Source of the DNA: Mycobacterium vicinigordonae
GTDB taxonomy: Bacteria; Actinomycetota; Actinomycetes; Mycobacteriales; Mycobacteriaceae
Assembly (NCBI RefSeq): GCF_013466425.1
Contig: NZ_CP059165.1
Location: 3,162,001-3,226,000, forward strand
Direction of reading: 5' to 3'
DNA: 64,000 nucleotides
Shown: piece after piece, positions 5,758 to 42,737 of the stretch
How the letters are laid out: each line of letters begins with the position of its first letter
Numbering within the stretch: position 1 is the first letter of the stretch
The notes under the pieces: generated by a model
Databases searched by the model: none
What the model saw: only the letters and a program-made list of their open reading frames with translations
Told to the model about the DNA's origin: nothing
Program-made: the position numbers and the translations under genes

Positions 5758-5800
5758 GTGGATACCGGATGCGGTCGTGGGGTGATGGCTTGAGAACAAA

Positions 5801-5818
5801 ACATTGCACTTGCAAGGT
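5801..5818. promoter_or_regulatory. Candidate TetR operator between divergent genes
   Basis: Imperfect palindrome with arms ACATTGCA and TGCAAGGT around a 2-base centre (7 of 8 pairs match). It lies between the TetR-fadD1 operon and the FAD monooxygenase gene, where an autoregulating TetR would bind. Confidence 0.45.
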
Positions 5819-5888
5819 TATGCCAACCGGTATGCGTGCGGACCGCGGGGTTGCCGACGATCGCGTCCGCGCCTCTATGCTTGCGCCA

Positions 5889-7106: not shown

Positions 7107-7125
7107 AACCGCTGCCCGCCGACGG

Positions 7126-26663: not shown

Positions 26664-27275
26664 TCAGGCGACGGAAGCACCGAGGATGAGGTTGACGGCC
26701 TCATCGAGTTGACCCGCGATCTCCTGATAGGTGAGAAAGCGGGCTGTCATCAGGGCACCCGCAAAAGTCATCTGCAGCGTGGACTTCACCGGACGTGGCC
26801 AGCCGGGACCCAGCGCCGCACCGATCCGCCGAGACACCTCCTCGGAGATCTGTTGACGCAGCGGCGCGACGGCCGGGTCGTCGGCCATTAAGGCCGCTCC
26901 GCATCCGGCGGTCAACTCAGGTTCGTCGGCAACCACCAGTGCCATGTCCCGCATCGTTGCGCTTACCCGGGTCTTGGTTGTGTCGTTCACGTCGGTGTGC
27001 AGCGGTAGCTCGCGCAGCAATCGCAAGTAGACCGCCGCGACCAGAGCGCTTTTGGAGGAAAAGTACGTATAGGCACTCGCCGGCGACACCCCGGCGCGCT
27101 GTGCCACCGCACGCATCGTCAGGTTGGCGTAGGACGATTCGCGCAATTCCTCCAGCCCGGCATCAAGGACTTTGCGGATCGTCTGCCCCGGCCGCCGATC
27201 TGACCTGCGCGACGCGGTGCTCCCGGCCGCGGTGCTGGCATGACCGCTAACCCGCGGAGCCGCTTCTCTAGACAC
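26664..27275 (-). CDS. TetR-family transcriptional regulator
   Basis: About 203 residues. A basic N-terminal tail is followed by the helix-turn-helix AQRAGVSPASAYTYFSSKSALV and a helical C-terminal domain. GTG 27275 is preferred, with GGACGG just upstream; a TTG 36 bases earlier is the alternative. An inverted repeat GACCA-N11-TGGTC lies 56 bases upstream (27331-27351). Nearby target genes are gene remnants and a methyltransferase, so the original target may be lost. Confidence 0.85.
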   Translation of the reverse strand: MSREAAPRVSGHASTAAGSTASRRSDRRPGQTIRKVLDAGLEELRESSYANLTMRAVAQRAGVSPASAYTYFSSKSALVAAVYLRLLRELPLHTDVNDTTKTRVSATMRDMALVVADEPELTAGCGAALMADDPAVAPLRQQISEEVSRRIGAALGPGWPRPVKSTLQMTFAGALMTARFLTYQEIAGQLDEAVNLILGASVA

Positions 27276-27330
27276 CCGTCCAGTGTAGAAAACAGCTACG
27301 GTCAGCCACAACCACCCAAGAAACGCTCTT

Positions 27331-28451: not shown

Positions 28452-29282
28452 ATGGAACGTCGCGTCCTCGAAGCCGTCATCTACGAGCGCGAGCCGCCCA
28501 TCGCGCGGATCATCCTCAACCGGGTCGACAAGGCCAACACCAAGGACGCGGTGCTGGTGACCGAAGTCGACACGTGCCTGCGCGAGGCCGACCGCGACAA
28601 GGAGATCAAAGTCGTCATCCTCAAAGCCAACGGCAACGGCTTCTGCGGTGGACATGTCGCCCGCTGGGGCCCGGACGAAAACCCTTATCCCGACTTCGGC
28701 AACACCTTCGAGGATCTCTACAAGGGCACCGCGGACCTGTTCCTGTGGCCGACGCTGTACCTGTGGGAGTTCCCGAAGCCCACCATCTCCCAGATCCACG
28801 GCTACTGCATGGGCGGCGGAATCTACCTCGGCCTGCTGACCGACTTCTGCGTCGCCTCCGAGGACGCGTATTTTCAGATGCCGCTTGCCCAAAGCCTCGG
28901 CGAGCCCGGCGGTCACACCATGATCGAACCGTGGTTAATGATGAATTGGCACCGCACCATGGACTGGCTGCTGCTGGCGCCCACACTGTCGGCTCAGCAG
29001 GCCCTGGACTGGGGACTGCTCAACCGGGTGGTAGCGCGAGAGGACCTCGAGGACACGGTGGAGGAGATGGCGCGCAAGATCGCGCAGATTCCGCTGACCA
29101 CGCTGATGGCAGTGAAGAGCAACGTGAAGCGGGCCTGGGAATTGATGGGTATGCGGGTGCACCTGCAGGTCAGCCACATCCTGACCAACATGGTCGGCGC
29201 GGCGACCGACGTGCAGGCCCGCCGCGCCGAACTTATGCAGTCGGGGATGAAGCCACGCGACTTCGTAGACCGCGACGAGTAG
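28452..29282 (+). CDS. Crotonase-family protein (enoyl-CoA hydratase-like), catalytic Glu positions changed
   Basis: 276 residues. Crotonase landmarks are NRVDKANTKDA, KANGNGFCGGHVA (first oxyanion loop) and HGYCMGGGIYLGL (second). The residues equivalent to the two catalytic glutamates of rat enoyl-CoA hydratase are Tyr125 (GGGIY) and Leu145 (FQMPL), so normal hydration is unlikely. It is a close paralogue of the operon crotonase at 33936-34808, sharing WELMGMRVH. It follows a fadE remnant and is convergent with the eight-gene operon, whose last stop is 5 bases away. Confidence 0.87.
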   Translation: MERRVLEAVIYEREPPIARIILNRVDKANTKDAVLVTEVDTCLREADRDKEIKVVILKANGNGFCGGHVARWGPDENPYPDFGNTFEDLYKGTADLFLWPTLYLWEFPKPTISQIHGYCMGGGIYLGLLTDFCVASEDAYFQMPLAQSLGEPGGHTMIEPWLMMNWHRTMDWLLLAPTLSAQQALDWGLLNRVVAREDLEDTVEEMARKIAQIPLTTLMAVKSNVKRAWELMGMRVHLQVSHILTNMVGAATDVQARRAELMQSGMKPRDFVDRDE

Positions 29283-29287
29283 CCGCG

Positions 29288-30988
29288 TCAACGGCTCTTT
29301 TCCCCGGCGATTTTGCGGCCGGCGGCATGTCGTGCCGCGACATAACCGAAAACCATCGAGCTGGCGATGCTCGCCCCCGCTCCCGGATAGGTTCGGCCCA
29401 TCACGGTGGCGGTGGTATTGCCGGTTGCGTACAGGCCCTCGATGACCCGGTCTTGTTCGTCGAGAACCTGGGCGTACTCGTTGGTGATCACCCCTCCGCA
29501 GGTACCGACGTCGGCCGGCAACACCCTGGTGGCGTAATACGGTGCCCGATCTAGTGGTCCCACCGCGGCATTCGGCCGGTAGCCCGGATCGCCCAAACAG
29601 TCGTTGTAGGCGGATTGGCCGCGGCCAAAGTCCGGGTCCAAACCCTTTGCGGCGTAACCGTTAAACCGTTGAACGGTGCGGATGAGTTCCTCGGCGGGAA
29701 GCTCGATCTGGCGCGCGAGTTCACCGAGGGTGTCAGCCCGCTTGACCGCGCCACTCTCTATCAATTCCGGGGGCAGGTGCTGACGCTTGATCGGGTTGGT
29801 GCCCGCCACGTAGCGGCGCACGTACCCGTGGTCGAAGATCATCCAGCAGGGCACCGCCTTATTGGCGTACATCGCTTTACCCACTTCGACATACGAATTC
29901 GACTCGTTGCAGAACCTCCGGCCGGTCGAGTCGACGTAGATGGCGCCAGGCCGTTGCCGTCCCGAACCCAGCGACGCAGCGGCCGCGCCGCCATTGGCGA
30001 TAAAGACGGACGGCAACCACCAGGCCTCGTCGAGGAGATCGGTCTTGGCGCCGAGCCGCATCGCGGCCTGCAGCACCTCGCCGGTGTCTCCGGCGTTGGC
30101 AATCGACCATTGTCCCTCGTTGGGCTGATCGCCGCTGTAACGGCGGCGCATATCAGGATTGTGCCCGAAACCTCCGGCCGCCAACAGAACTCCCTTGCGC
30201 GCCTCGACATTCATCGCTGTGCCACCGTGGTTGATGCGCGCGCCGAGCACCCTCCCGTCCTCGATGATGAGGTCCTCCATGGCGGCGTTGACCCACAGTG
30301 GCGGCTGACCGTCACTGAGGCCGATCAGCACCTTGAGCATCTGCCCGATCAACGAGGCCCCGTTGGTGAGGACCTGGCGTCGTGCGATTTTCGCGGCGTT
30401 GGTACGCGCGAAAACCTTGGTGGCTACGGCCAGCGCACGAGGAGACCGGTTGAAGTACTGCACCGAACGCAGCTCATTGGTCAGCACGACGTATCCGTAG
30501 TTCTTGGCCAGCGACGGCTGCACTTTGTCGCGCCACCCGCCCAGTTCGGCTGCGTCGAACGGAATCCCTTCGACGGCGCGGCCGGATTCGTTGCCGCCCT
30601 TGTGATTCGGGTAGTAGTCGCTCCATCCGGCGCAGCGGATCAGCCGAACACCCTTGCGCACCAGGAAATTGATCATCTCGTAGCCGGCGGTGAGGAACAT
30701 CTCCCGTCGCTCCGGTGAGGATGCCTGGCCGACGTCACCGACCACGTCGGCCAGGTATGCCAGACCGTCCTCGTGAGAGTCAACGATTCCGTCGGCCCGC
30801 ATCAGCGGGTTGTTCGGCAGCCAGACGATTCCCCCGGACAATCCCGTCGAACCGCCCACCAGGGACTGCTTCTCGACGATCAGCGGTTGCAACCCGGCGT
30901 CCAGTGCGGCCAGGCCGGCGACCATGCCCCCGCCGCCACTGCCCGCGATCACCAGGTCGACGGAACGATCCCAGTTGACGGCGCTCAC
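29288..30988 (-). CDS. KstD-like FAD-dependent dehydrogenase (3-ketosteroid delta-1 dehydrogenase family)
   Basis: 566 residues. FAD-binding motif GSGGGGMVAGLAALDAG is followed by VGGSTGLSGGIVWLPNN (near 42-58) as in KstD and related flavoproteins. The KstD-type active-site region SDYYPNHKGG and the C-terminal FAD loop MGRTYPGAGASI are present. The family introduces 1,2-double bonds into ketosteroid A rings or similar cyclic ketones. It is the last gene of the operon, and its ATG overlaps the Rieske stop (ATGA), so both are made together. The actual substrate is unknown. Confidence 0.88.
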   Translation of the reverse strand: MSAVNWDRSVDLVIAGSGGGGMVAGLAALDAGLQPLIVEKQSLVGGSTGLSGGIVWLPNNPLMRADGIVDSHEDGLAYLADVVGDVGQASSPERREMFLTAGYEMINFLVRKGVRLIRCAGWSDYYPNHKGGNESGRAVEGIPFDAAELGGWRDKVQPSLAKNYGYVVLTNELRSVQYFNRSPRALAVATKVFARTNAAKIARRQVLTNGASLIGQMLKVLIGLSDGQPPLWVNAAMEDLIIEDGRVLGARINHGGTAMNVEARKGVLLAAGGFGHNPDMRRRYSGDQPNEGQWSIANAGDTGEVLQAAMRLGAKTDLLDEAWWLPSVFIANGGAAAASLGSGRQRPGAIYVDSTGRRFCNESNSYVEVGKAMYANKAVPCWMIFDHGYVRRYVAGTNPIKRQHLPPELIESGAVKRADTLGELARQIELPAEELIRTVQRFNGYAAKGLDPDFGRGQSAYNDCLGDPGYRPNAAVGPLDRAPYYATRVLPADVGTCGGVITNEYAQVLDEQDRVIEGLYATGNTTATVMGRTYPGAGASIASSMVFGYVAARHAAGRKIAGEKSR

Positions 30989-32355
30989 CGTGCCCCTCCT
31001 GTCGCAGTGGCCGCACCGGAGGTGAAGCCGAGGTCCACCACTGGGACATCGATGGTCGTGTTGGTCTTTTGGATCGCCGGCACCAGCGTCTGATATGGCA
31101 ATCCGGCCAAGAATCCATCAATGACGCGTTCGAAGTTCGAGATCAAACCTTCAATTTGGCTGGACAACCTCATGAACTCGAAACCCTTGGAATGCAGGCC
31201 CTTTTGCTGCTTGGGCAGATTAGAGAAATCCTGGGCGGGGATCGGTGGCCAGCGCGGGTCATCTGGCGCCATGGGTTCCGGCGGTGTCGGCTTACCGGTG
31301 ACCTGGTCGGCCGGGATACGGGTGAGCGACCAGATCTCGAATAAGGTCTCCTCGGGACCCAGTGGCCGGATGCGGTACGACGAGGCGCTGCTGTACTGAG
31401 GCAAGAGGAAGTAGTGCGGGAAGCCGAACCCGATCGCATCGACGATGCCGCGACGCTGCAGCTCGTTGAGATCGGGGATGTCGCAGCCGCGGGCCCGATG
31501 CCAGTGCACCACAGCGTCATTGAGGGTGCGCTTCCACACCGCCATTGCCTCGGCGGGATCGGCGGGCAATTCGATGTCCTGCAGTCCTTCGGCAATGCGT
31601 ACGTCGTTCTCATGGGTCATGCCGGCCATCCCCGTACCGAGGGTACGCATGAAGTACAGGCTGGTCTGGACGAGTCCCGGAGGTTTGTCGCTGGCGGGCT
31701 GTGCCGACGGCAGCAGTTGCGGATGGGTCTGGGGAACGTGATAGCCCTCCATGAAGGCGGCAGTCGCCAGCTTCCAGTTCACTGGCAGCCGACACGACTG
31801 CCACCACTCGGTGCGCAGCGATTCGACCTTCCAGGCGTCATAGATCGTGGCAAACGGTTCCAAGCAGTCGCGCAGTCCAGGGGCTTCGTCGTCGAGGTTG
31901 ATCCAGACGCAGCCACCCCACAGTTCGCATCGCACCGGCACCAGCGCAAGGTCGTTCGGATCCAGGTTGTGCTCGTCGAATGCCTCGGGCCGCAGCACGA
32001 AGGTGTTGCGGCCGTCGATGTTCCAGCACCAGCCGTGGAACGGGCAGACGAAGGTACGCCGAGACCCGTTGCCCTCCACCAGTTTCACACCGCGATGCCG
32101 ACAGGCATTGTGGTATGCCCGCACGGTGTCGGTGTCGACCCGAACCACAATGATCGACTGGTCGAGGATCTCGTACTCCACGAAATCACCGGTCTTGGGG
32201 ATCTCTTCGAGCCGGCAGGCCATCTGCCACACCCGCGGCCAGAGCTTCTCGTTCTCCAGCGCGTAGAACTCCGGATCGTAATACCGCTGTTTGGGAATCC
32301 GATCGGCGGCCTGCACCGCCCACGGCACCGGCAGTGGCGTCCAGTTCACGTCCAT
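30985..32355 (-). CDS. Rieske non-heme iron oxygenase, alpha subunit
   Basis: 456 residues. The Rieske [2Fe-2S] ligands C85, H87, C104, H107 sit in CRHRG and CPFHGW. The mononuclear iron site has GYHVPQTHP (H206, H211). It belongs to the aromatic-ring-hydroxylating dioxygenase alpha subunits and related KshA-like monooxygenases. No beta subunit, reductase or ferredoxin gene is adjacent, so electrons must come from elsewhere. Stop overlaps the start of the KstD-like gene; start lies 22 bases after fadD. Confidence 0.92.
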   Translation of the reverse strand: MDVNWTPLPVPWAVQAADRIPKQRYYDPEFYALENEKLWPRVWQMACRLEEIPKTGDFVEYEILDQSIIVVRVDTDTVRAYHNACRHRGVKLVEGNGSRRTFVCPFHGWCWNIDGRNTFVLRPEAFDEHNLDPNDLALVPVRCELWGGCVWINLDDEAPGLRDCLEPFATIYDAWKVESLRTEWWQSCRLPVNWKLATAAFMEGYHVPQTHPQLLPSAQPASDKPPGLVQTSLYFMRTLGTGMAGMTHENDVRIAEGLQDIELPADPAEAMAVWKRTLNDAVVHWHRARGCDIPDLNELQRRGIVDAIGFGFPHYFLLPQYSSASSYRIRPLGPEETLFEIWSLTRIPADQVTGKPTPPEPMAPDDPRWPPIPAQDFSNLPKQQKGLHSKGFEFMRLSSQIEGLISNFERVIDGFLAGLPYQTLVPAIQKTNTTIDVPVVDLGFTSGAATATGGAR

Positions 32356-32377
32356 GTCTTCTCCGTTGGTTTTGGGC

Positions 32378-33919
32378 TCATAGAATCCTGGACATCCGGC
32401 CCTGCCAATAGCGTTCTCTGAGCCGCTTTTTGTAGAGCTTGCCGTTCGGGTCGCGGGGCAACTCCAACTCGAATTCGATCGTGCGCGGGCACTTGTAGGT
32501 CGCCAGGTGCGATCGGCAGTAGGCGATCAACTCCGCTTCCAGTTCCGGGCCGGGCGTGACACCCACGATCGGTTGCACGACGGCCTTGACCTCCTCGCCG
32601 TACTCGTCATTCGGTACGCCGAATACTGCGGCGTCGACGAGTTTGGGATGCATGACCAGTAGGTTCTCCGCCTCCTGCGGGTAGATGTTGACCCCGCCGG
32701 AGACGATCATGAACGTGGAGCGGTCGGTGAGGTAGAGGTAACCGTCCTCATCGACGCGACCGATGTCGCCCAAGGTCCGCCAACCACGCTCGTTATACAC
32801 CGACGCGGTCTTGGCGGGATCCTTGAAGTACTGGAACTCGGGGCCGCCTTCGAAGTACAGCTCCCCGGATTCGCCGACGGGTAGTTCGTTGCCGTCGTCG
32901 CCGATGACATGAACCGGAGTCATCGGGATGCCCACCGACCCTGGGTGGGCCAGCCACTCTTCGGGGCCGATCGTAGTGCCGGCGAATCCTTCGGTGCCAC
33001 CGTAGTATTCGTGGATGATCGGCCCGAACCAATCCATCATTTGGTGTTTGACCTCGACCGGGCAGGGCGCGGCGGCGTGGATCACACACTGCAAGCTCGA
33101 CACGTCGTACTTGTCGCGGACGGCCCTGGGCAGCTTGAGCAACCGCACGAACATGGTCGGCACGAACTGCGCGTGCGTCACTCGATGGGCCTCGATCAGG
33201 CGGAGCACTTCTTCGGCATCGAACTTGGGCATGATGACCGACGCCGCGCCCACTCGGTTGACGGCCATCGTGTAGTTCACCCCAGCCGCGTGGTAGAGCG
33301 GGGCAGGGGAGAGGTACACACTCGACGCGGTCATCGCGTACTTGTGCCTCAGTGCCATCTCCAACACTGCCTGCGCCCAAGAACCGTTGCCGTCCAATGG
33401 AAGCGGGCGGCGCACCGCCTTGGGCCGGCCGGTGGTGCCCGACGAGTACAGCATCTCCGACCCGTCCGAGATCGGCGGCGCCTGCCCCGCCACCGCTAGC
33501 ACATCCGCGTACGGCTGCCATCCGGGCACATCGCCGCCCACTCCCACGTGGACGGCCACTGCGTTGTTGACATCGCGAACGTGCACCGCCAGCTCGCGTC
33601 CCACGCCGCGGGAAACGTCGACGAACACCGCCTTGGCGTCGGAGTCGTCGATCACATACGCCGCTTCCTCGGGCGTGAAGTGGGTATTGACAGCGGTGTA
33701 GTACAACCCGGAAAACTGGCAGCCCCAGGTTATCTCGAAGAATTCGGGCCGGTTCGGCAGGACCAGGGCCACGCCGTCACCGCGGCGCAGCCCGGCATCG
33801 TGCAGCGCCCCGGCGACCTTCTGGCTGCGGGCGTAGAGGTCACCGAAGGAGACCGTACCGTCCTCGACGATCAGAGCGGGCGCCAGCGGATTCCGCTGCG
33901 CGTGGTCGGCGATGTTCAC
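32378..33919 (-). CDS. Acyl-CoA synthetase (FadD family)
   Basis: 513-residue adenylate-forming ligase. P-loop MLYSSGTTGRPKAV, motif EYYGGTEG, hinge DGYLYLTDRSTFMIVSGG and catalytic lysine region PRDPNGKLYKKRL are intact. It activates a carboxylic acid to its CoA ester at the start of a catabolic route. The operon context (Rieske, KstD-like, crotonase) suggests a bulky cyclic acid rather than a simple fatty acid. Located 16 bases after the crotonase stop. The substrate cannot be read from sequence. Confidence 0.9.
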   Translation of the reverse strand: MNIADHAQRNPLAPALIVEDGTVSFGDLYARSQKVAGALHDAGLRRGDGVALVLPNRPEFFEITWGCQFSGLYYTAVNTHFTPEEAAYVIDDSDAKAVFVDVSRGVGRELAVHVRDVNNAVAVHVGVGGDVPGWQPYADVLAVAGQAPPISDGSEMLYSSGTTGRPKAVRRPLPLDGNGSWAQAVLEMALRHKYAMTASSVYLSPAPLYHAAGVNYTMAVNRVGAASVIMPKFDAEEVLRLIEAHRVTHAQFVPTMFVRLLKLPRAVRDKYDVSSLQCVIHAAAPCPVEVKHQMMDWFGPIIHEYYGGTEGFAGTTIGPEEWLAHPGSVGIPMTPVHVIGDDGNELPVGESGELYFEGGPEFQYFKDPAKTASVYNERGWRTLGDIGRVDEDGYLYLTDRSTFMIVSGGVNIYPQEAENLLVMHPKLVDAAVFGVPNDEYGEEVKAVVQPIVGVTPGPELEAELIAYCRSHLATYKCPRTIEFELELPRDPNGKLYKKRLRERYWQGRMSRIL

Positions 33920-33935
33920 CGGGCGACCCCCACCA

Positions 33936-34808
33936 CTACGTCGTTGCAGCGGCGCCGTCGGTCGATGCGGCGGCTGCCTGGCGGCGGGCCTGCTCGGAGG
34001 GCAGCACCTTGTCCTTGAACACGGTCTGGATGAGCTGTTGCACGTCCTTGCTGATCGACGCGAGGGCCACCAGGTCGTTGGAGCTCTGCCAGTGCACCCG
34101 CATACCCATCAGCTCCCAGGCCCGCTTGAGGTTGGCCTTGGTCGCCAGCAGCGTCGTCATCGGCGCTTGAGCAATGTGGCGGGCGATCGCTTCAACGCGG
34201 TCGTTGAGCTGATCGCGCGGAACCACCTCGTTGACTAGCCCGACCTCTAGTGCCTTCTTGGCGTCGATGACCTCGGCGAGATACAGGTAGTAGGCGGCAC
34301 GACGCCAGTTCATGAACACCCAAGGTTCGATCGAGCATTCACCGGAGGGCATGCCGAAGCCCTGCAACGGCGGGTAGGAGAAGTAGGCGTCCTCTGCGGC
34401 GATGACAATGTCGGTGGTCAGCCCGTAATGCGTGCCGCCGCCCACGCAGTAGCCGTGCACCTGCGCGATCGTCGGCTTGGAGAACTCCCAGAGATTCAGG
34501 ATCGGCTTGACGAACAGGTCGGTCTGCGGCTTCCACGGCGTGCCCATCACCCCGGCAGCCTCGACGAACGACGGGTAGTCGACGGCGTTATTGCCGATGG
34601 CGTGCCCCGAGCAGAAGCCCTTGCCGTTGGCCTTGAGGATCAGCACCTTGATGTCGTAGTCGCGGTCAGCGTCCAGCAACGCGGCGTCGACCTCCTCCGC
34701 GAGCTTCTGGTCCTGGGCGTTGGCCTTCTCGGGCCAGTTCAGGGTGACGCGGGCGATGGGCCCTTCCTTTTCGTAGATGATTCGTTCGCGGGTTTCTTTG
34801 AGGTCCAT
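33936..34808 (-). CDS. Operon crotonase (enoyl-CoA hydratase-like), catalytic Glu positions changed
   Basis: 290 residues. Landmarks are NWPEKANAQD, KANGKGFCSGHAIG (first oxyanion loop) and HGYCVGGGTHYGL (second). The catalytic Glu equivalents are His127 (GGGTH) and Pro147 (FSYPP). It shares WELMGMRVH with the crotonase at 28452. ATG 34808 (MDLKETRERI) is chosen over a frame extending upstream. It sits between the lipoyl carrier and fadD. A retro-aldol, ring-opening or hydrolase role is possible. Confidence 0.88.
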   Translation of the reverse strand: MDLKETRERIIYEKEGPIARVTLNWPEKANAQDQKLAEEVDAALLDADRDYDIKVLILKANGKGFCSGHAIGNNAVDYPSFVEAAGVMGTPWKPQTDLFVKPILNLWEFSKPTIAQVHGYCVGGGTHYGLTTDIVIAAEDAYFSYPPLQGFGMPSGECSIEPWVFMNWRRAAYYLYLAEVIDAKKALEVGLVNEVVPRDQLNDRVEAIARHIAQAPMTTLLATKANLKRAWELMGMRVHWQSSNDLVALASISKDVQQLIQTVFKDKVLPSEQARRQAAAASTDGAAATT

Positions 34809-34842
34809 GGCTTTTCGATACCTTTCGTGATGGGGTGACTCG

Positions 34843-35079
34843 TTACGGAGTGATGACGCCGATCTGGGCGCCGATGTCATAGGTCGTTCCGATCTGACCG
34901 GTCCACTGCACGGTGCCCGACGCTCCAGCTTCGATTTCCTGTTCCACCTTTTCGGTGGCGATCACGTAGATCGGCGTACCTTCCTCGACGTACTCGCCAC
35001 CGTTGACCAGGAGGTCGGTGAGTTCGGCCTCCGACACGGCCACCGACACCCGGGGAATCCGAATCACAAACTCAGCCAT
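34843..35079 (-). CDS. Free-standing lipoyl-domain carrier protein
   Basis: 78 residues, all one lipoyl/biotinyl domain. The modified lysine is most likely Lys44 in ATEKVEQEI, at the tip of the central beta hairpin. Start overlaps the stop of the E1 beta gene by 8 bases. Normal ketoacid dehydrogenases carry the lipoyl domain on a larger E2 that also has the catalytic acyltransferase core; here no core or peripheral-binding domain is attached. It is presumably a swinging-arm substrate for the E1 in the same operon. Confidence 0.88.
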   Translation of the reverse strand: MAEFVIRIPRVSVAVSEAELTDLLVNGGEYVEEGTPIYVIATEKVEQEIEAGASGTVQWTGQIGTTYDIGAQIGVITP

Positions 35080-36079
35080 GCGCTCTCGCCCTCTCCAAAG
35101 TGAGCTGCGCCGCAGCCACGATGCGGGCCGGCGACGGATACACCTGGGCCTCTAGGGCGGCCGCGGCCGGATTGGGCACGAATCGGGCCCCGACCCGCTG
35201 GATGGGGGCGGCGAGCTCACCGAACAGCTCGGCCTGCAGGATCGCCGCGATCTCGGCCCCCGGCCCGGCGAATTGGACCGCATCGTGCACGATCACGACT
35301 CGCCGGGTACGGCGGGCGGATTCAACGATTGTCTCCACATCCAGTGGTACCAGCGTCCGCAAGTCGACCACCTCGGCGCTGACATCTTGTTCCTGCAAGG
35401 TAGCCGCCGCCGCGAGCGCGTCGTGCACCGCGCGTCCGTAGGCGATCAACGTTACGTCGGTACCGGGACGCTTGATATCGGCCTGGCCCAACGGGATCGA
35501 GAACCCCTCCGCTATCGGGACGGGCCCCTTGCGGCTTTGTAGCCGGATCGTCTCGACGAACAGGCACGGATCCTCGTCGAAAATCGCCGACGTCAGCAGC
35601 CCCTTGCCGTCCCGGGGAGTGGACGGGACGATCACTTTCATCCCGGGGATGTGCATGAACCAGGCCTCCAGCGACTGCGAGTGCGTCGCGCCGGTGGCCA
35701 GGCCTGCGTACACCTGGGTACGGATGGTGATCGGTGCGGTAGTGCGCCCGGCGGTCATGAATCGCAATTTGGCGGCGCTGTTGATCAGTTGGTCGGCGGC
35801 GATGCCGATGAAGTCCATAATCATGATTTCGGCAACCGGCAACAGCCCGTCGATCGCCGCGCCGACCGCCGCACCGACAATCGCGGCCTCCGATATCGGC
35901 GTGTCCAACACCCGATCGTGGCCGTACTTGGTCGACAACCCTGCGGTGGGGCCAGAGGCGCCGGGGTCGGCGATGTCCTCGCCGAGGAGGAACACTCGAT
36001 CATCGGCGTGCAACGCCTGGTCCAGCGCGAGGTTCAGCGCCTCGCGCATGGTCATCTCTTGCTCGTCCTCTGGTTGCAT
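35072..36079 (-). CDS. 2-oxoacid dehydrogenase E1 component, beta subunit
   Basis: 335 residues. Typical PdhB/BkdB features are REALNLALDQ, FLLGEDIADPG, DTPISEAAIVGAAVG, EIMIMDFIGIAADQLINSAA and a transketolase C-terminal domain with VVDLRTLVPLD. It forms the TPP enzyme with the E1 alpha encoded just upstream (12-base gap). ATG 36079 is used; ATG 36055 (MTMREAL reading) is a possible shorter start. Substrate class (pyruvate, branched-chain or acetoin-like) not decided. Confidence 0.93.
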   Translation of the reverse strand: MQPEDEQEMTMREALNLALDQALHADDRVFLLGEDIADPGASGPTAGLSTKYGHDRVLDTPISEAAIVGAAVGAAIDGLLPVAEIMIMDFIGIAADQLINSAAKLRFMTAGRTTAPITIRTQVYAGLATGATHSQSLEAWFMHIPGMKVIVPSTPRDGKGLLTSAIFDEDPCLFVETIRLQSRKGPVPIAEGFSIPLGQADIKRPGTDVTLIAYGRAVHDALAAAATLQEQDVSAEVVDLRTLVPLDVETIVESARRTRRVVIVHDAVQFAGPGAEIAAILQAELFGELAAPIQRVGARFVPNPAAAALEAQVYPSPARIVAAAQLTLERARAHG

Positions 36080-36091
36080 TACGCGGACTCC

Positions 36092-37066
36092 TTACCGGGG
36101 GAAGCTAATCGGCGTCGCGTACACGTCGCGCTCAAGTTCCGCTGCCGAAGGCGAGTCGGCGCTGAGCACCGCCTGCAGCGCTGCCTCGACCGCCGCCGCG
36201 GCGTCAGCGTCGATGCGGTCTAATTCCTCGTCGCTGCAGATCCCCTCCTCGGCCAGCCGGCTACGGAACCGCGGCACCGGGTCGGCAGCCATCGCGGTGG
36301 CAAGCTGATCCTTCGGGATGTAGGGCATCCGATCACCGAAATAGTGGCCGCGGAAGCGGAAAGTCACGCATTCGATCAAGGTGGGACCCGCGCCGGTCCG
36401 AGCCCGTTCCAGCGCCGTGTCCAGCGCGGTTTTCACCGCCCGCGGGTCGTTGCCGTCGACTCTTACGCCGGGCATGCCGTAGCCGGCCGCGCGGTCGGCG
36501 ACCTGGTTGATCTTCATCGTGTCCGACGTTGGGGTCATCTCGGCGTAGAGATTGTTCTGGCACACGAAGACCAGCGGCAGATCCCACAGCGCAGCCATGT
36601 TGGCCGCCTCGTGGAATGAGCCGGTGTTGGTCGCGCCGTCGCCGAAGCTGACCACGGTCACCCGATCGGAGCCCCTGCGCTTTGCGGCCATCGCCAGACC
36701 CACCGCAACCGGCGGGCCGGCCCCGACGATCCCGGTCGAAAACATCACGCCGACAGCGGGGTTGGCGATGTGCATGGTGCCGCCTTTGCCGCGTCCTGCG
36801 CCAACGACACGGCCCATCATCTCGCCGTAGATCTCCTCGAGCGGCACTCCCTTTCCAATCAGGTCGTGCAGCCCCCGGTAAGTCGTGACCAACTGGTCGT
36901 CGGGTCGCAACGCCTCTGCCATGGCCGCGGCGACGGCTTCCTGACCACGCGAGGGCCAGTAGACGCACATGAACTCCCCGGTACCGATGCCTTTGGACAG
37001 CCGATCATCGGCCGTCTTCATCAGCACCATCAGCTCGTAGAGGCGACGCTCACTCACCCGATACAC
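36092..37066 (-). CDS. 2-oxoacid/acetoin-type dehydrogenase E1 component, alpha subunit
   Basis: 324 residues. The thiamine diphosphate motif GDGATNTGSFHEAANM (142-157) through NN (171-172) is complete, and the substrate-side region TYRGLHDL and KGGTMHI resemble acetoin dehydrogenase (AcoA) and PdhA. It decarboxylates a 2-oxoacid (or cleaves an acyloin) and passes the acyl group to a lipoyl arm. GTG 37066 is the start. It lies 22 bases after the SDR gene, second in the operon. Confidence 0.93.
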   Translation of the reverse strand: MYRVSERRLYELMVLMKTADDRLSKGIGTGEFMCVYWPSRGQEAVAAAMAEALRPDDQLVTTYRGLHDLIGKGVPLEEIYGEMMGRVVGAGRGKGGTMHIANPAVGVMFSTGIVGAGPPVAVGLAMAAKRRGSDRVTVVSFGDGATNTGSFHEAANMAALWDLPLVFVCQNNLYAEMTPTSDTMKINQVADRAAGYGMPGVRVDGNDPRAVKTALDTALERARTGAGPTLIECVTFRFRGHYFGDRMPYIPKDQLATAMAADPVPRFRSRLAEEGICSDEELDRIDADAAAAVEAALQAVLSADSPSAAELERDVYATPISFPR

Positions 37067-37088
37067 CTAATTCCGTTGCGCGACAAGG

Positions 37089-37952
37089 CTATGACCCCGA
37101 CCAGGGCTTGACTTTGAGGAAGCCGCCGGCATCCACCCGCAACTGCTGGCCGGTGATGTACCGCGCGGCGTCGGAGGCCAGGAACACCACGGCCTCACTG
37201 ATGTCTTCGGGCTCCACATAAGGGACCGGCATCGCCTGCACCAGTGGAAAGATCGGTTCGGCATCCTCGCGGGTCGGATTCGCCAGGTCGGGCCGAAACG
37301 CCCGGTACATCGGCGCGCTGTGCAGCATGTCGGTGTTGACGTTGGTGGGGTGGATCGCGTTCATCCTGATGAAGAACGGCGCCAGCGCCCGCGCGAAGTC
37401 GTTCACGTAGTGTGAGGCAGCGATTTTCGCGAATGCGTAACCAGCGCCCCCAGGTCCACCGTCGATGCCGGTGGTGTTCATCGACGACATGAATGCGGCG
37501 TTGGACCCGATCACGATGACCGATGCCCCAGACTGCAGATGTTTGAGGCTGGTGTGCACCAGATTGAGCACCCCGACCAAGTCGACGTCGACGGCATCGG
37601 CGAAGGCCTGCGGCGGCAGGCCCGCGGTCAATGGGCAGATTCCGGCGTTGGCGACGACGATGTCGAGCCGGCCCAGTTGCGCCACGCCTTCGTCGACAGC
37701 GGCCGATAACGCGGCCCGGTCACGAACATCGACGACCGCGGAGAAGATGCGCTGACCCTCCTTCTCCACTAGCCGTACGGTTTCTTCGAGGTCCTCCGGC
37801 CGGGCCAACGGGTACTCGTTGGTCTCGATGTCGGCACACAAGTCCAGCGCGATGATGTCTGCGCCCTCGGCCGCGAGCATCCGCGCATGCGACCGGCCCT
37901 GCCCCCGTGCCGCTCCGCTGATCACCGCGACCTTGCCGGTAACTCGGCCCAT
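37089..37952 (-). CDS. Mycofactocin-type short-chain dehydrogenase
   Basis: 287 residues. Cofactor motif SGAARGQGRSHA is followed by the insert LDLCADIETNEYPLA and PEDLEETVRLVE, which mark the SDRs that hold NAD non-exchangeably and rely on mycofactocin. NAG (102-104), Ser150, Tyr172 and Lys176 (GYAFAK) complete the active site. Start at 37952 (MGRVTGKVAV). It is the first gene of the eight-gene leftward operon and is divergent from the CoA-transferase. Likely oxidises a secondary alcohol intermediate (inference). Confidence 0.9.
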   Translation of the reverse strand: MGRVTGKVAVISGAARGQGRSHARMLAAEGADIIALDLCADIETNEYPLARPEDLEETVRLVEKEGQRIFSAVVDVRDRAALSAAVDEGVAQLGRLDIVVANAGICPLTAGLPPQAFADAVDVDLVGVLNLVHTSLKHLQSGASVIVIGSNAAFMSSMNTTGIDGGPGGAGYAFAKIAASHYVNDFARALAPFFIRMNAIHPTNVNTDMLHSAPMYRAFRPDLANPTREDAEPIFPLVQAMPVPYVEPEDISEAVVFLASDAARYITGQQLRVDAGGFLKVKPWSGS

Positions 37953-38150
37953 CACCCGCCCCCTACTCACTTGAACTGACAGCGCATTGGGCACGAGAAA
38001 CACTGTGGCCCAATGCATCTAATTGTGCGGAAGAGCACCCGAGGAGATCCACGGACACGGGGTCCGGGATCAGGTCAATCGTCGGCTCCATCCCATCTCT
38101 TCCACGAGCAGCCGCGGTGCGAACACCCGCGTGGCTGCAGCCGGGCTATC

Positions 38151-38177
38151 GATATTCCTTACACTAGCTAGAATATC
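38151..38177. promoter_or_regulatory. Palindromic operator in divergent promoter of the accessory catabolic cluster
   Basis: Perfect inverted repeat GATATTC - N13 - GAATATC enclosing CTAGCTAG (38164-38171). TAAAAT follows directly (38178-38183) and could be a -10 box for the CoA-transferase gene. A second CTAGCTA occurs at 38197-38203, 33 bases away, about three helical turns. Confidence 0.55.
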
Positions 38178-38196
38178 TAAAATAGCAAGAAATGAC

Positions 38197-38203
38197 CTAG
38201 CTA
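38197..38203. promoter_or_regulatory. Second CTAGCTA half-element
   Basis: Repeat of the core found inside the palindrome at 38151-38177, between the likely -10 region and the start of the CoA-transferase gene. Fits a roadblock or cooperative second operator. Confidence 0.35.
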
Positions 38204-38219
38204 ACAGAGAGGCCGGTCG

Positions 38220-39440
38220 ATGACGGGTGTGCTCAGCGGTGTTCGAGTGGTGGAACTGGCGTCCTGGACGTATGTGCCTTCGGCCGGAGTCGCGTTGGCG
38301 GACTGGGGCGCTGACGTAATCAAGGTGGAGGGCGTCGCGTCCGGTGACCCCGGCCGGGCGCTGGTCGTCGGCGGTTTCACCCGCCAGGCCGCACGCGCCG
38401 ACACCGACTTCATCCTGGAACTGAGCAACCGGGGCAAGCGCAGCGTCGCGATCGACATCAAGTCGGACACCGGCCGTGAGTTGTTCGGTCGCCTACTGGC
38501 CTCCGCCGACGTGTTCCTCACCAACTGGCTGCCCGGCGCGCTGGACCGGGCCCGGCTAACCGTCGAGGACATCCGCTCGTTCAATCCGAACATCATCATC
38601 GCCCGCGGTACCGGGCTGGGGGTGCGCGGCCCGGACCGAGACCGCGGCGGATTCGACGCTGCCACTTACCTTGCGCGCGGCGGGGTGGCATACACTCTCA
38701 CCCCGTTCGGTACTGAGAACCCCGCGGTCCAGGGTCCGGCGTTCGGCGACCTACAAGGCGGAGCCACGCTGGCGGGCGGGGTGTGCGCCGCGCTGTTCCA
38801 TCGGGAGCGCACCGGCGAGCCCAGCATCGTCGACTCCTCGTTGCTAGCCCAAGCGATGTGGGCGATCGCACCGTCCATTTCGGTGGCCGACCTGTTCGAC
38901 ATCGACGGAATCCCCGGCGCGCCACCTGGACTGGCCATCAACCCGCTGGTGGCGCGGTATAAGACCAAGGACGACAGATGGATTCAGCTGGTCTTCCTGC
39001 AGCCGGACAAATTCTGGGCCGGCTTCTGCCAGCGCATGGGCCTTCCGGAGCTGGTCAACGACGAGCGGTTCGTACCGTCCAGCAACCTCATCGCCAACGC
39101 CGCCGAAGCCACCGCGATCTTCGCGAATGCATTTGCGGCCCAAGATCTCGCGCACTGGCGGCAGGTGCTCCAGGACGAGCCGGGTGTCTGGGGTGCGCTG
39201 GCCACGCCGAAAGAGGCGCTCAACGACCCGCAGGTCGAGCCCAACGGGTACGTCATCACCAACGTCGACGACCAGGGTGAGAAATACCGGATCGTAGCCG
39301 CCCCCGTCCAGTTCAACGAGACCCCGCCGGGGCCCACGCGAGCGCCCGAACACGGCCAACACACCGAGGAGGTGCTGCTCGAACTCGATCTCGATTGGGA
39401 CGAAATCGCCCGCGCGAAGGACAGCAAGGCAATCCTGTGA
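38220..39440 (+). CDS. CaiB/BaiF-family CoA-transferase
   Basis: 406 residues of the class III CoA-transferase fold. The start VRVVELASWTYVPSAG, the DIKSDTGRELF segment and SIVDSSLLAQAMW, with the family's catalytic-type Asp, are characteristic. It moves CoA between carboxylic acids, which in steroid or bile-acid routes recycles CoA to the substrate. ATG 38220 has AGAGAGG upstream. It is divergent from the eight-gene operon and shares its palindromic control region, so it probably belongs to that pathway. Confidence 0.9.
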   Translation: MTGVLSGVRVVELASWTYVPSAGVALADWGADVIKVEGVASGDPGRALVVGGFTRQAARADTDFILELSNRGKRSVAIDIKSDTGRELFGRLLASADVFLTNWLPGALDRARLTVEDIRSFNPNIIIARGTGLGVRGPDRDRGGFDAATYLARGGVAYTLTPFGTENPAVQGPAFGDLQGGATLAGGVCAALFHRERTGEPSIVDSSLLAQAMWAIAPSISVADLFDIDGIPGAPPGLAINPLVARYKTKDDRWIQLVFLQPDKFWAGFCQRMGLPELVNDERFVPSSNLIANAAEATAIFANAFAAQDLAHWRQVLQDEPGVWGALATPKEALNDPQVEPNGYVITNVDDQGEKYRIVAAPVQFNETPPGPTRAPEHGQHTEEVLLELDLDWDEIARAKDSKAIL

Positions 39441-39604
39441 GTTACCCCATTGTCGCGGAGCGTGATCCCGGCACGGGTGAACTGTTCGCCTGAGATGATC
39501 GGTGCCGGCCCCGGATACTGAGCCACGTCGGCGCACCGAAATGCGGGGTGCGCCGACGCTGTCGCGATAGCCTTTGCGAGGTTTTCGACGGCGGGAGGCA
39601 TCTG

Positions 39605-41527
39605 GTGAGTTTCTTTGGGTCGCCGAATCTCGTCGCGGCGCCTGAGTTCCTGACGGCGGCCGCGTCCGATCTGGCGAATTTGGGCACGTCACTCAACGCG
39701 GCCAGCGCCGCGGCAGCAGCTCCGACAACGGCTCTGATCGCCGCGGGAGCTGACGATGTTTCGGTTGCGGTTGCCGCATTATTCGGTGCGCACGCGCAGA
39801 CATACCAATCGCTGAGCGCCCAGGCGGCGGCCTTTCATCAGCAATTCGTCCAGGCATTGAGCGCGGGCGCGGGCGCCTACTCATTTGCCGAGTCCGCCAA
39901 TGCGGTGCCGCTGGCCGCACAATCCATCGGTGAAGACCTGCTCAATCTGATCAACATGCCGACGCAGACGTTGTTCGGGCGGCCCCTGATCGGTAACGGC
40001 GCCGACGGCGCCCCGGGTACCGGAGCCAGCGGCGGAGCCGGCGGGATCCTGTGGGGCAACGGTGGCAACGGCGGGTCCGGCGCCACCAATCAGGGCGGCG
40101 GCAACGGTGGCAACGCCGGTCTATTCGGCAACGGCGGCAATGGCGGCGCTGCGGGGAACAGCAGCACCGCGGGCGGCAACGGGTTCGCCGGCGGTGCTGG
40201 CGGCAACGGCGGACTGCTGTGGGGCAACGGCGGTTTCGGCGGCACCGGCGGAAACGGAGCCGCCCCGCTGACCGGCAGCATCGTCGGCACCAGCGGCGGC
40301 AGCGGCGGCAATGGCGGCAGCGCCGGATTGCTCTACGGCTTCGGCGGAGCGGGTGGTGCGGGCGGCACCGGCGGGGCGGCCCCGCTGCCGAGTCCCACGC
40401 AGACCATCCCGTCGGCCGGCGGAGTCGGTGGATCCGGCGGCGCGGGTGGCAGCGGCGCGGCGCTGTTCGGCGGCGGCGGGTCGGGCGGCGCGGGCGGCGC
40501 CGGCGGCCTCAGCGACGCAACGACCAGCAGCGTGGGCGGCTACGGCGGCCAAGGCGGCACCGGTGGCCAGAGCGGCCTGTTGTACGGCGCGCCCGGCGGC
40601 GGGGGCGACGGCGGGCACGGCGGCGCCGGTGTGGACAGTCTCGGCAACCTGGGCAACCCCGGCGGTCACGGCGGCGCCGGCGGCGCAGGGGGAGCGGTCG
40701 GCCTGTTCGGCAGCGGAGGCCACGGCGGCGATGGCGGGCCCGGTGGGAACGGCAGCAGCACTTCGATCGCCCTTGGGACCGGCGGCAACGGTGGTGTCGG
40801 CGGAACGGGCGGCAGCGGCGCAGCCGGTGGTTTGATCTACGGCAACGGCGGAACCGGCGGCAACGGTGCGCTCGGGGGCAGCGGTGGCGGCGGACTCACT
40901 GAGGGCTACGCCGGTTCGGGTGGCTTCGGTGGCGCCGGTGGCAATGCCTGGCTGCTCGGCGTCGGCGGCCAGGGTGGCAATGGCGGGGGCATCGGCCTTG
41001 CTGGGTTGACCGCTGGGACCCCGGCCACCACGCAACCGGTCGGCGGTATCGGCGGCAACGGAGGTCGGGCCGGGCTACTGCTCGGCGTCGGGGGCAATGG
41101 CGGAAACGGCGGAGCGACCAGCCCCGGCGGGGTGCTCTACGCCTCCGGAGGAAGTGGCGGCAATGGCGGCTGGATCGTCGGCAACGGCGGCATCGGGGGC
41201 AACGGCGGTGCCGGCACCGGCAGCATCGCCAACGGCGGTTCCGGCGGCAATGCCGCGTTGCTGTTCGGGACCGGCGGCGCCGGCGGGACCGCGGGTGCCG
41301 GAGGTATTGGCACAGGCGGTTCCGGCGGCCTCGGTGGCTTGCTGCTCGGAAACGGCGGGGCGGGCGGCAACGGCGCCCCAGGCGGTACGGGTGCGGGCGG
41401 CGCCGGTGGCAACGCCTGGTTGATCGGCAATGGCGGAAACGGTGGGGCAGGCACCGGCGGGGCGCCGGGCGGTGCAGGCGGTCGCCGGGGATTGCTGTTG
41501 GGTCAGGACGGCGCGAATGGACCGTGA
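39605..41527 (+). CDS. PE_PGRS family protein
   Basis: 640 residues. PE domain (1-100) with the [17 protein letters not shown] start and the YxxxE export-type motif at Tyr92-Glu96, a linker with GRPLIGNG (125-132), then about 500 residues of GGxGG repeats (PGRS). Such proteins are secreted by ESX-5 and shown at the cell surface. GTG 39605 has GGGAGG upstream. It resembles PE_PGRS31 (Rv1768) in place and size. Its 3' end overlaps the next start by 11 bases. Long opposite-strand frames over the repeats are composition artefacts. Confidence 0.92.
40003..41520 (+). repeat. PGRS Gly/Ala/Asn repeat tract
   Basis: About 1.5 kb of GGC/GGN-rich imperfect repeats, coding GGNGG and GGAGG units separated by short inserts such as LLYGFGGA and WGNGGFGG. 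This is a recombination-prone and assembly-prone tract inside the PE_PGRS gene. Confidence 0.9.
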
Positions 41528-42737
41528 CTCGCCCGTTCCGCTGGATCTGCAGGGCCGGCTGCAGCGCTACGAGCAGGCATTCGCCGAGCTCGATGCGCCG
41601 TTCGCCTTCGTAGACCTCGACGCGATGTGGCACAACGCTGGCCAGATGCTGTCCAGAGCCGGCGACAAGCCCATCCGAGTTGCCTCGAAGTCATTGCGGT
41701 GTAGGCATTTACACCGTGAAATCCTGGACTCGGAGCAACGGTTCGACGGGTTGATGACGTTTACCCTGGAGGAGACCCTGTGGCTGGCCGGGCATGGGTT
41801 CGACAACCTGCTGCTGGCTTACCCGAGCACCGATCGCGCCGGCCTGCGCCGACTCGGCGAACTCACCGCAGCCGATCCCGATGGCGCGCCGATCCTGATG
41901 GTCGACAGCATTGAGCACCTGGACTTGATCCAAAGCGCGACAGATCGGCCCTTTCGATTGGGTCTGGACTTCGACGCCGGTTACTGGCTTGCCGGCGGGC
42001 GGCTGCGGATCGGTCCCAAACGTTCGCCGGTGCACAGCCCCGAGCAGGCCCGCGCCCTAGCTGAGGCGATCGGTCGACGACCGGGGCTGAAACTTGTCGC
42101 GCTGATGTGCTACGAGGGCCACGTCGCCGGACTCGGAGACCAGGTCGCCGGCAAGCTCGCACAGAACGCGATTGTTGGGTGGCTGCAGCGCCGATCGATG
42201 GCGGAACTGCGAGACCGCCGCGCTCGCGCGGTCGAACTTGTACGAGAGGTCGCCGACCTCGAGGTCGTCAACGCCGGCGGCACTGGAGACCTGCAACTGG
42301 TCGCCCAGGAGCCGGCGATGACCGAGGCGACCGCCGGCTCCGGGTTTTTTGCGCCGACGCTGTTTGACTCCTATTCCACGTTCACGTTGCAGCCCGCAGC
42401 CATGTTCGCGCTGCCGATCTGCCGCCGGCCCGACCAGAACACGGTCACCGCCCTTGGCGGCGGCTACCTGGCCAGCGGTGTCGGCGCCAGGGACCGCATG
42501 CCCACGCCCTACCTTCCGGCCGGGCTCAAGCTCAACCCGATGGAAGGCGCCGGTGAAGTCCAGACACCGCTGACCGGCGCGGCCGCGCGCCAACTCAAGG
42601 TGGGCGACCGCGTGTACTTCCGCCATACCAAGGCGGGGGAGTTGTGCGAGCGGTTCGCCCGATTGCATTTAGTTCGGGGTGCGCAGATCGTCGACACGGT
42701 GCCGACCTACCGCGGTGAAGGGCAAACGTTCCTGTGA
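41517..42737 (+). CDS. PLP-dependent amino-acid deaminase/aldolase-like enzyme (Rv1769-like)
   Basis: 406 residues, fold-type III (alanine-racemase-like) N-terminal barrel with VASKSLRC, where Lys is the probable PLP Schiff-base residue. A C-terminal beta domain contains [13 protein letters not shown] as in D-threonine aldolase and D-serine dehydratase-like proteins, with candidate metal ligands His and Cys. ATG 41517 overlaps the PE_PGRS stop, so translation is probably coupled. Neighbourhood and length correspond to M. tuberculosis Rv1769. Substrate unknown. Confidence 0.85.

What the first reader, a model, noticed from the sequence alone, without database searches (positions are those of the whole stretch)
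29288..39440. Eight-gene leftward operon plus divergent CoA-transferase: candidate undescribed catabolic system
Seen: SDR, E1 alpha, E1 beta, lipoyl carrier, crotonase, acyl-CoA ligase, Rieske oxygenase and KstD-like flavoprotein run on one strand with gaps of 12-34 bases and two overlaps; a CaiB/BaiF CoA-transferase is divergent with a palindromic control region between. Known: each family acts in CoA activation, ring oxidation, ketosteroid-type dehydrogenation or ketoacid decarboxylation. Inference: a pathway for a cyclic acid (steroid-, bile-acid- or terpenoid-like) with a decarboxylating step, distinct from the classical kstR cholesterol operons, because I see no hsaC or kshB-like gene here.
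Basis: partly seen in the sequence, partly recalled or inferred. Interest (0 to 1): 0.8.

Follow-up and report, generated by a model that had tools for sequence, protein, structure and literature searches.

The report
Conserved mycobacterial ring-degradation gene cluster
A ten-gene cluster kept in the same order in many mycobacteria, and built around a set of enzymes also found together in some unrelated soil bacteria, probably breaks down a ring-shaped natural compound, but which compound is not known.

Summary
Eight genes run leftward (29288-37952) with gaps of 12-34 bases and two overlaps, and a CaiB/BaiF gene (38220-39440) diverges. The ten-gene order is intact in 53 of the 80 relatives kept. 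Eight others share a different arrangement that adds two acyl-CoA dehydrogenases and, where the sequence reaches, P450, ferredoxin and KshA-like Rieske genes. A 36-base element in the control region (59 of 59 sequences) recurs at those extra genes, suggesting one regulon. Three plasmids (Paraburkholderia, Azospirillum, Streptomyces) cluster Rieske, KstD-like flavoprotein, E1 alpha, E1 beta and lipoyl carrier; the Paraburkholderia one adds a separate E2 domain. Best reading: CoA-dependent catabolism of an alicyclic (terpenoid- or steroid-like) ring, with a split thiamine-diphosphate/lipoyl complex cutting a C-C bond. KstD residues recalled as catalytic are conserved; both crotonases lack the hydratase glutamate pair. 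Against: five relatives lost the E1 genes yet keep the rest; more distant Rieske relatives lack KstD beside them. Substrate unassigned; nine open-access searches found no description.

The parts
   Evidence: Pfam ECH_1; found in 76 of 80 loci, the other 4 being cut by contig ends; median 94% identity over those 76 matches
29288..30988 (-). KstD-like FAD dehydrogenase (566 aa), NCBIfam PRK12844
   Evidence: 872.3 bits against a cut-off of 789; residues recalled as catalytic, Tyr119/318/487 and Gly491 of 4c3x, align to identical residues that are kept in at least 97% of 78 sequences
30985..32355 (-). Rieske oxygenase alpha subunit (456 aa)
   Evidence: Pfam Rieske + Ring_hydroxyl_A; nearest solved structures carnitine monooxygenase 6y9c and ring-hydroxylating dioxygenases; not among the KshA_C matches of the genome
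32378..33919 (-). acyl-CoA ligase (513 aa), FadD4-like
   Evidence: Pfam AMP-binding; NCBIfam FadD4 609.7 bits, below its cut-off of 850
33936..34808 (-). ech: crotonase-fold protein (290 aa) without the hydratase Glu pair
   Evidence: Pfam ECH_1; alignment to 5zai puts His127 and Pro147 where the two Glu stand; His127 kept in at least 97% of 69 sequences
34843..35079 (-). stand-alone lipoyl carrier (78 aa), probable lipoyl-Lys44, no acyltransferase domain
   Evidence: Pfam Biotin_lipoyl 37.5 bits; aligned to E2 lipoyl domains; TEKV motif
35072..36079 (-). E1 beta subunit (335 aa)
   Evidence: Pfam Transket_pyr + Transketolase_C; 317.3 bits to PRK09212, cut-off 321
36092..37066 (-). E1 alpha subunit (324 aa)
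   Evidence: Pfam E1_dh; PDH/BCKDH E1 alpha in the PDB; relatives of 78% identity or more in 60 of 198 genus genomes, own included
37089..37952 (-). mycofactocin-coupled SDR (287 aa from the conserved start)
   Evidence: NCBIfam TIGR03971, 332.7 bits against a cut-off of 300
38157..38192 (-). conserved AT-rich element TTTCTTGCTATTTTAGATATTCTAGCTAGTGTAAGG (minus strand), core at 38167-38186; regulatory role inferred
   Evidence: present in 59 of 59 intergenic sequences that hold caiB and sdr within 600 nt; only site with up to 3 mismatches in the whole genome
38220..39440 (+). CaiB/BaiF class III CoA-transferase (406 aa)
   Evidence: Pfam CoA_transf_3, 282.1 bits; 68 matches in the 80 loci
26664..27311 (-). 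TetR-family regulator, a candidate regulator of the block (link is inference)
   Evidence: Pfam TetR_N; 52 matches in the 80 loci

Best explanation
The block is an operon-type catabolic cluster for an alicyclic ring compound, most likely a terpenoid- or steroid-like ketone or acid. SHOWN: gene content, conserved order, conserved control element, conserved KstD residues, loss of the hydratase Glu pair in both crotonases, and recurrence of the Rieske / KstD-like / E1 alpha / E1 beta / lipoyl set on three plasmids of other taxa. INFERRED: the FadD ligase (and/or the CaiB transferase) puts the substrate or its degradation products on CoA. The Rieske oxygenase, fed by unlinked redox partners, hydroxylates the ring. 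The mycofactocin SDR oxidises a secondary alcohol to a ketone. The KstD-like flavoenzyme desaturates next to the ring ketone. The two atypical crotonases hydrolyse a C-C bond or rearrange a CoA ester rather than hydrate a double bond. E1 alpha-beta with the free lipoyl carrier cleaves a C-C bond next to a carbonyl (an alpha-keto acid, or an alpha-hydroxyketone/diketone as acetoin dehydrogenase does), and the acyl group passes from lipoyl to CoA by an acyltransferase encoded elsewhere.
For: Ten-gene order in 53 of 80 loci. Clusters on three of the six plasmid regions fetched: Paraburkholderia (Rieske, FAD, E1a, E1b, lipoyl, E2 domain, ligase, crotonase, ECH, two acyl-CoA dehydrogenases, SDR), Azospirillum and Streptomyces. 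The Paraburkholderia and Azospirillum FAD proteins exceed the same PRK12844 cut-off, and the separate Paraburkholderia gene is the 2-oxoacid_dh acyltransferase domain. The two best of 8 plasmid KstD hits are those same two clusters. The element recurs at extra genes of the alternative arrangement. In a distant class, 5 of 11 Rieske loci fetched show a neighbour that I read as a Baeyer-Villiger type monooxygenase and 3 of 11 show E1. E1 alpha and E1 beta were lost together in 5 of 80 loci, as expected of one module.
Against: No substrate, expression or biochemical data. No ferredoxin, reductase, E2 or E3 in the block. The E1 losses show that the rest can persist without the E1 module, so the E1 step may be peripheral. 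CaiB is not found in 5 otherwise complete loci. In 11 loci of the distant class the Rieske has no KstD-like, lipoyl, crotB or caiB match beside it, and a strict E1 alpha search there found 0 of 148 genomes. Of the other three plasmid regions, the one with the closest Rieske (48%, Sphingobium RAC03) shows no E1 within 29 kb, the Rhodococcus one has no annotated lipoyl gene, and the Sphingobium Tom one has E1 with only a 27% Rieske match. In Streptomyces the FAD protein between Rieske and E1 alpha is only 23% identical to the window's; the closer one (34%) lies further along and misses the PRK12844 cut-off. Identities outside the genus are low, so substrates may differ.
Confidence: 0.55

Rival explanations
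1. The E1/lipoyl unit is an ordinary 2-oxo acid decarboxylase of a ring-derived keto acid, and the remaining genes are a standard beta-oxidation-like tail.
For: E1 alpha and beta match PDH/BCKDH families best; the Paraburkholderia E2 domain matches PDH acetyltransferases best.
Against: No curated cut-off for a named 2-oxo acid dehydrogenase is reached (E1 beta misses by 4 bits); ten listed Sphingobium relatives are annotated as acetoin:DCPIP oxidoreductase (annotators' label); no acetoin E1 model appeared in the hits, so the two kinds were not separated.
Confidence: 0.35
2. The cluster is a biosynthetic or detoxifying unit that modifies a lipid or terpenoid rather than a growth pathway.
For: In 4 of the 8 loci of the alternative arrangement MmpS/MmpL-like genes lie nearby (labels read from the sequences), and such genes also occur in export and biosynthesis clusters (recalled).
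Against: CoA ligase, CoA-transferase, paired acyl-CoA dehydrogenases, crotonases and an E1 are degradative in type; clusters in other taxa have a similar make-up.
Confidence: 0.15
3. It is a divergent branch of the cholesterol pathway, acting on a sterol or sterol intermediate.
For: KstD residues conserved; a Rieske gene that I call KshA-like (only a weak hit to 4beta-methylsterol monooxygenase, 82.9 bits, cut-off 600) lies in the alternative arrangement.
Against: Separate KshA-family and KstD-like genes exist elsewhere in the genome; the block's Rieske is not in the KshA_C hits; the control element occurs once in the genome, so it does not mark a large regulon here. KstR sites themselves were not searched.
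Confidence: 0.2

Closest known systems
Actinobacterial 9,10-seco steroid (cholesterol) pathway: KstD + KshA/B (recalled; PMC4810484, passages seen)
   Same: KstD-type dehydrogenase with the recalled catalytic residues, Rieske oxygenase, CoA ligases, crotonases
   Different: Rieske not in the KshA_C hits; E1/lipoyl module present; distinct locus
Acetoin dehydrogenase / 2-oxo acid dehydrogenase complexes (E1 alpha-beta, lipoyl E2)
   Same: E1 alpha and beta and a lipoyl domain encoded in a row
   Different: Lipoyl domain is a free 78-aa carrier; no E2 catalytic domain or E3 in the block; joined to Rieske and KstD-like genes
Plasmid clusters of Paraburkholderia sprentiae WSM5005, Azospirillum sp. 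B510, Streptomyces sp. NBC_00564
   Same: Rieske, E1 alpha, E1 beta, lipoyl carrier and FAD dehydrogenase within about 13 kb, with AMP-binding ligase and SDR
   Different: Matches to window proteins 23-54% identical; a separate E2 domain in Paraburkholderia; substrates not known to me
NCBIfam PRK12844 '3-ketosteroid-delta-1-dehydrogenase'
   Same: Window protein exceeds the cut-off
   Different: The name reflects annotation; I saw no assay for this branch

Membership tests
KstD (PRK12844) flavin dehydrogenases | score above curated cut-off | tested here: met
   872.3 against 789 bits
KstD (PRK12844) flavin dehydrogenases | catalytic Tyr119, Tyr318, Tyr487, Gly491 (KstD1 numbering, recalled) | tested here: met
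   alignment to 4c3x; kept in at least 97% of 78 sequences
KstD (PRK12844) flavin dehydrogenases | activity on 3-ketosteroids | not testable with these tools
   needs an assay
Classical KstR cholesterol regulon | KshA-family Rieske in the block | tested here: not met
   nine KshA_C matches in the genome, none in the block
Classical KstR cholesterol regulon | hsaC and kshB in the block | tested here: not met
   none among the ten annotated proteins; rest of window and genome not searched
Classical KstR cholesterol regulon | KstR operator | not tested
   no KstR motif search was made
2-oxo acid / acetoin dehydrogenase complex | E1 alpha and E1 beta | tested here: met
2-oxo acid / acetoin dehydrogenase complex | lipoyl domain | tested here: met
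2-oxo acid / acetoin dehydrogenase complex | E2 acyltransferase domain and E3 in the operon | tested here: not met
   none among the ten proteins; among the regions examined a separate E2 domain was seen only in Paraburkholderia
Named 2-oxo acid dehydrogenase E1 equivalogs | score above a curated cut-off | tested here: not met
   best E1 alpha 271.7 against 393.85, E1 beta 317.3 against 321
Enoyl-CoA hydratase (catalytic pair Glu144/Glu164 type, recalled) | both Glu residues | tested here: not met
   His127 and Pro147 in ech; for crotB, Tyr and Leu read by eye from the ech/crotB correspondence
Mycofactocin-coupled SDR | score above TIGR03971 cut-off | tested here: met
   332.7 against 300 bits

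The most novel reading that the evidence does not exclude
A ring-degradation strategy shared across phyla and not described in the papers I could search: Rieske hydroxylation and mycofactocin or other SDR oxidation make a cyclic or side-chain alpha-hydroxyketone or diketone, KstD-type desaturation activates the ring, and a split thiamine-diphosphate E1 with a free lipoyl carrier performs the C-C cleavage, with atypical crotonases completing it by hydrolytic cleavage.
Probability: 0.2. Interest if true: 0.75.

Novelty: new variant of a known kind. Interest (0 to 1): 0.5.

Why it matters
If right, it gives a defined, conserved gene set and a regulon marker for a natural ring compound that many environmental and opportunistic mycobacteria can apparently use, and it ties an acetoin-dehydrogenase-like complex to terpenoid- or steroid-like catabolism in more than one phylum. 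That makes substrate hunting straightforward: one control element, one operon, and related clusters in named soil bacteria.

Tried and rejected
Palindrome as operator: the perfect 9-nt inverted repeat (37984-37992 / 38008-38016) lies outside the conserved stretch; the conserved element is elsewhere. Abscisic-acid and tomatine pathways were considered as named substrates. The tomatine paper (PMC10653915, passages seen) and the abscisic-acid paper (PMC7996341, passages seen) showed no E1/Rieske cassette in those passages, so I did not adopt them. Chance adjacency of E1 and lipoyl genes was rejected because the trio recurs on plasmids of other taxa and, with fused E1, in the same genome.

Structure prediction of ech with a 20-sequence alignment failed (mean pLDDT 39.9), so no fold search was run and the C-C hydrolase idea for the crotonases rests on residues alone. 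The PDB comparison of a P450 from the alternative arrangement did not point to a substrate class.

Paper searches: (listings and opening abstracts seen; passages read only in PMC10653915, PMC4810484, PMC7996341). One search returned nothing. 'Not described' means not found in those nine searches of the held open-access library.

Limits of the counts: the collection scan kept 80 of 279 relatives, so the synteny figure describes the best 80 only. Of the 27 without the full order: 8 show the other arrangement (L106, L107, L109, L110, L111, L114, L115, L118), 7 are cut by contig ends (L048, L053, L059, L068, L101, L102, L117), 1 is cut at the locus edge and carries about 2.8 kb between ech and fadD (L075), 5 lack the E1 genes (L039, L066, L077, L084, L095; L077 also lacks the SDR, L066 is a metagenome bin with N and also lacks fadD, so assembly faults are not excluded), 1 lacks fadD (L082), 5 lack caiB within the stretch held (L061, L097, L098, L104, L112). 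The 59 of 59 figure counts only sequences that hold both caiB and sdr within 600 nt. In some searches Rieske rows whose matched span contained a stop were dropped (46 and 53 rows used, the latter with 7 outgroup rows). In one search some loci come from the same genomes and overlap, so some sites are counted twice; the reversed control gave 0 sites at 12 bits or more in those loci, 1 at 9, 2 at 6, and one of 12.0 bits in the reversed window, so single sites of about 9-13 bits are not safe.

Empty or thin results: Rieske at E 1e-90 in 5 of 396 phylum genomes, own included; E1 alpha in 0 of 148 genomes of the class of G572 at E 1e-110; crotB in 0 of 1 at E 1e-40.
Full report
WHAT IS THERE. A CaiB/BaiF gene diverges at 38220. 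A tenth gene was missed: a second crotonase-fold protein at 28452-29282 (+), convergent and 5 nt from the KstD-like gene.

CONSERVATION. One scan with the Rieske protein found 279 relatives in a collection of one genome per species and kept 80. In 53 of these 80 the ten genes stand uninterrupted in the order caiB(-) sdr E1a E1b lipoyl ech fadD Rieske kstD crotB(-). The remaining 27 are itemised in Tried and rejected. The tenth gene is the most conserved protein (median 94% identity over 76 matches, against 80% for FadD). A close E1 alpha (78% or more) occurs in 60 of 198 sampled genomes of the genus, own included, with one further partial match. Outside the genus the Rieske is rare: at E 1e-90, 5 of 396 genomes drawn from the phylum had it, four of the genus (own included) and one other. 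In a Rieske tree of 53 rows (rows with a stop in the matched span dropped) the eight rows that I labelled 'fast_order', six with the other arrangement and two cut by contig ends, lie on one side of a branch with 99/99 support. That is compatible with one rearrangement and vertical descent; the outgroup branches are long. The window's nearest rows are M. asiaticum and M. gordonae.

THE OTHER ARRANGEMENT. In L106, L107, L109, L110, L111, L114, L115 and L118 (which include Mycolicibacterium stellerae, M. novocastrense and Mycobacterium neglectum) Rieske and kstD are followed by convergent crotB and caiB and by acyl-CoA dehydrogenase genes, two in all eight genomes. Then, divergently, come SDR (6 of 8; not in L109, nor at that place in the L118 genome), a small protein, E1 alpha, E1 beta and, where the stretch reaches, lipoyl, ech and fadD. 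Seven of these eight genomes were read further. The same P450 follows in 7 of 7; an alcohol dehydrogenase, a Rieske-type ferredoxin and two amidohydrolases in 6 of 7; a second P450 and a double CaiB in 5 of 7; a KshA-like Rieske gene in 4 of 7. Some stretches end before these genes, and the seventh genome (L129) has mce-like genes after the first P450 instead (labels read from the sequence).

CONTROL ELEMENT. The caiB/sdr intergenic regions share TTCCTTGCTATTTTAGATATTCTAGCTASTSTAAGG in 59 of 59 sequences, most positions at 90% or more, inside an otherwise variable stretch. In the whole 6.27-Mb genome it is the only site with up to 3 mismatches. A weight matrix built from it finds 18 sites of 15 bits or more in 347 kb of loci of the other arrangement and none in the same sequences reversed (overlapping loci counted twice, weaker-site controls in Tried and rejected). 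Strong sites lie between acyl-CoA dehydrogenase and SDR or the small gene, before Rieske (L107, L110; the other Rieske sites are weak or missing), at P450/ferredoxin (L124, L127) and at P450/KshA-like Rieske (L123-L126; weaker in L127). This is the best evidence that those extra genes belong to the same regulon. Which protein binds it is unknown; the nearby TetR gene (26664-27311; 52 matches in 80 loci) is a candidate only.

SAME SET ELSEWHERE. Among six plasmid regions fetched, three hold Rieske, a KstD-like FAD protein, E1 alpha, E1 beta and a lipoyl carrier within about 13 kb: Streptomyces sp. NBC_00564, Azospirillum sp. B510 and Paraburkholderia sprentiae WSM5005. The Paraburkholderia block reads Rieske, FAD protein, E1 alpha, E1 beta, lipoyl, E2 catalytic domain, ligase, crotonase, ECH, two acyl-CoA dehydrogenases, SDR. 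Its FAD protein and the one in Azospirillum pass the same PRK12844 cut-off as the window protein, and they are the two best of the 8 plasmid records with a KstD-like hit. The Streptomyces one misses that cut-off. The separate gene after the Paraburkholderia lipoyl carrier is a 2-oxoacid_dh acyltransferase domain, which shows how a free lipoyl carrier can be completed. The other three regions fit less well: Rhodococcus sp. ZPP has E1 and a 28% Rieske but no annotated lipoyl gene; Sphingobium TomMM7A has E1, two KstD-like proteins (31-33%) and a 27% Rieske match; Sphingobium RAC03 has the closest Rieske of this listed plasmid record set bar one (48%) but no E1 in the 29 kb fetched.

A DISTANT CLASS. 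In the 11 loci fetched, 5 clearly show a flavoprotein neighbour that I read as a Baeyer-Villiger type monooxygenase and 3 show E1 alpha and beta, but none shows a KstD-like, lipoyl, crotB or caiB match. So the Rieske also works in other company. The window's own genome holds two further E1 clusters, one with a fused E1 alpha-beta, a 77-aa lipoyl carrier, crotonases, P450 and an SDR 63% identical to the block's, one with Rieske, P450, a KstD-like protein, ligases and a flavoprotein monooxygenase.

ACTIVE SITES. Against 4c3x the KstD-like protein keeps the residues that I recall as catalytic, each in at least 97% of 78 sequences. Both crotonases differ from hydratases: in ech the two glutamates align to His127 and Pro147; His127 is kept in at least 97% of 69 sequences. 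The Rieske protein carries a CxH/CxxH cluster and an E-G-Y-H...H motif aligned to carnitine monooxygenase.

MECHANISM. The most economical reading is CoA-dependent degradation of an alicyclic ring: ligase and/or CoA-transferase activation, Rieske hydroxylation, SDR oxidation, KstD-type desaturation, and C-C cleavage by E1/lipoyl and by the atypical crotonases. The order of steps and the substrate are inference. E1 alpha and E1 beta were lost together in 5 of 80 loci with differing remnants or none, so they behave as a module, but one that the rest can outlive. That is a result against making the E1 step central.

COMPARISON WITH THE KNOWN. The genome has separate KshA-family matches (9) and six other KstD-like matches; one KshA-KstD pair lies about 0.5 kb apart and one about 10 kb. 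The block is therefore not the genome's only, and probably not its main, steroid-type locus. I did not search the genome for hsaC, kshB or KstR sites. Nine paper searches found no description of the set (calls listed in Tried and rejected); coverage is open-access only.

VERDICT. A real, conserved and probably co-regulated catabolic cluster, extended by one gene and tied to related clusters in other taxa, with class-level function likely and substrate unknown.

Noticed in passing
window 39548-41527: A glycine-rich repetitive ORF with a PE-like start (PE-PGRS type, label recalled) lies between caiB and the next gene (within 41430-42737); in the M. gordonae locus L040 those two genes are direct neighbours, so it looks inserted.
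   Followed up: partly
L039, L066, L077, L084, L095: Loss of E1 alpha and E1 beta, with or without lipoyl, from an otherwise largely kept operon, with differing remnants or none.
   Followed up: partly
L075 about 4321-7135: About 2.8 kb between ech and fadD where other species have a few tens of bases.
   Followed up: no
P0087 (736 aa): A protein listed with FAD_binding_2 plus Rieske domains, a possible fusion of the two neighbouring genes; a frameshift or assembly join is not excluded.
   Followed up: no
own genome 1640000-1659900 (L133) and 1876000-1895900 (L132): Two paralogous E1 clusters with P450, KstD-like or crotonase, SDR and ligase genes.
   Followed up: partly
L109, L111, L115, L118 left of the Rieske gene: MmpL-like and MmpS-like genes with a TetR regulator, and in L109, L115 and L118 an SDR-P450 pair, next to the cluster (labels read from the sequences).
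   Followed up: partly
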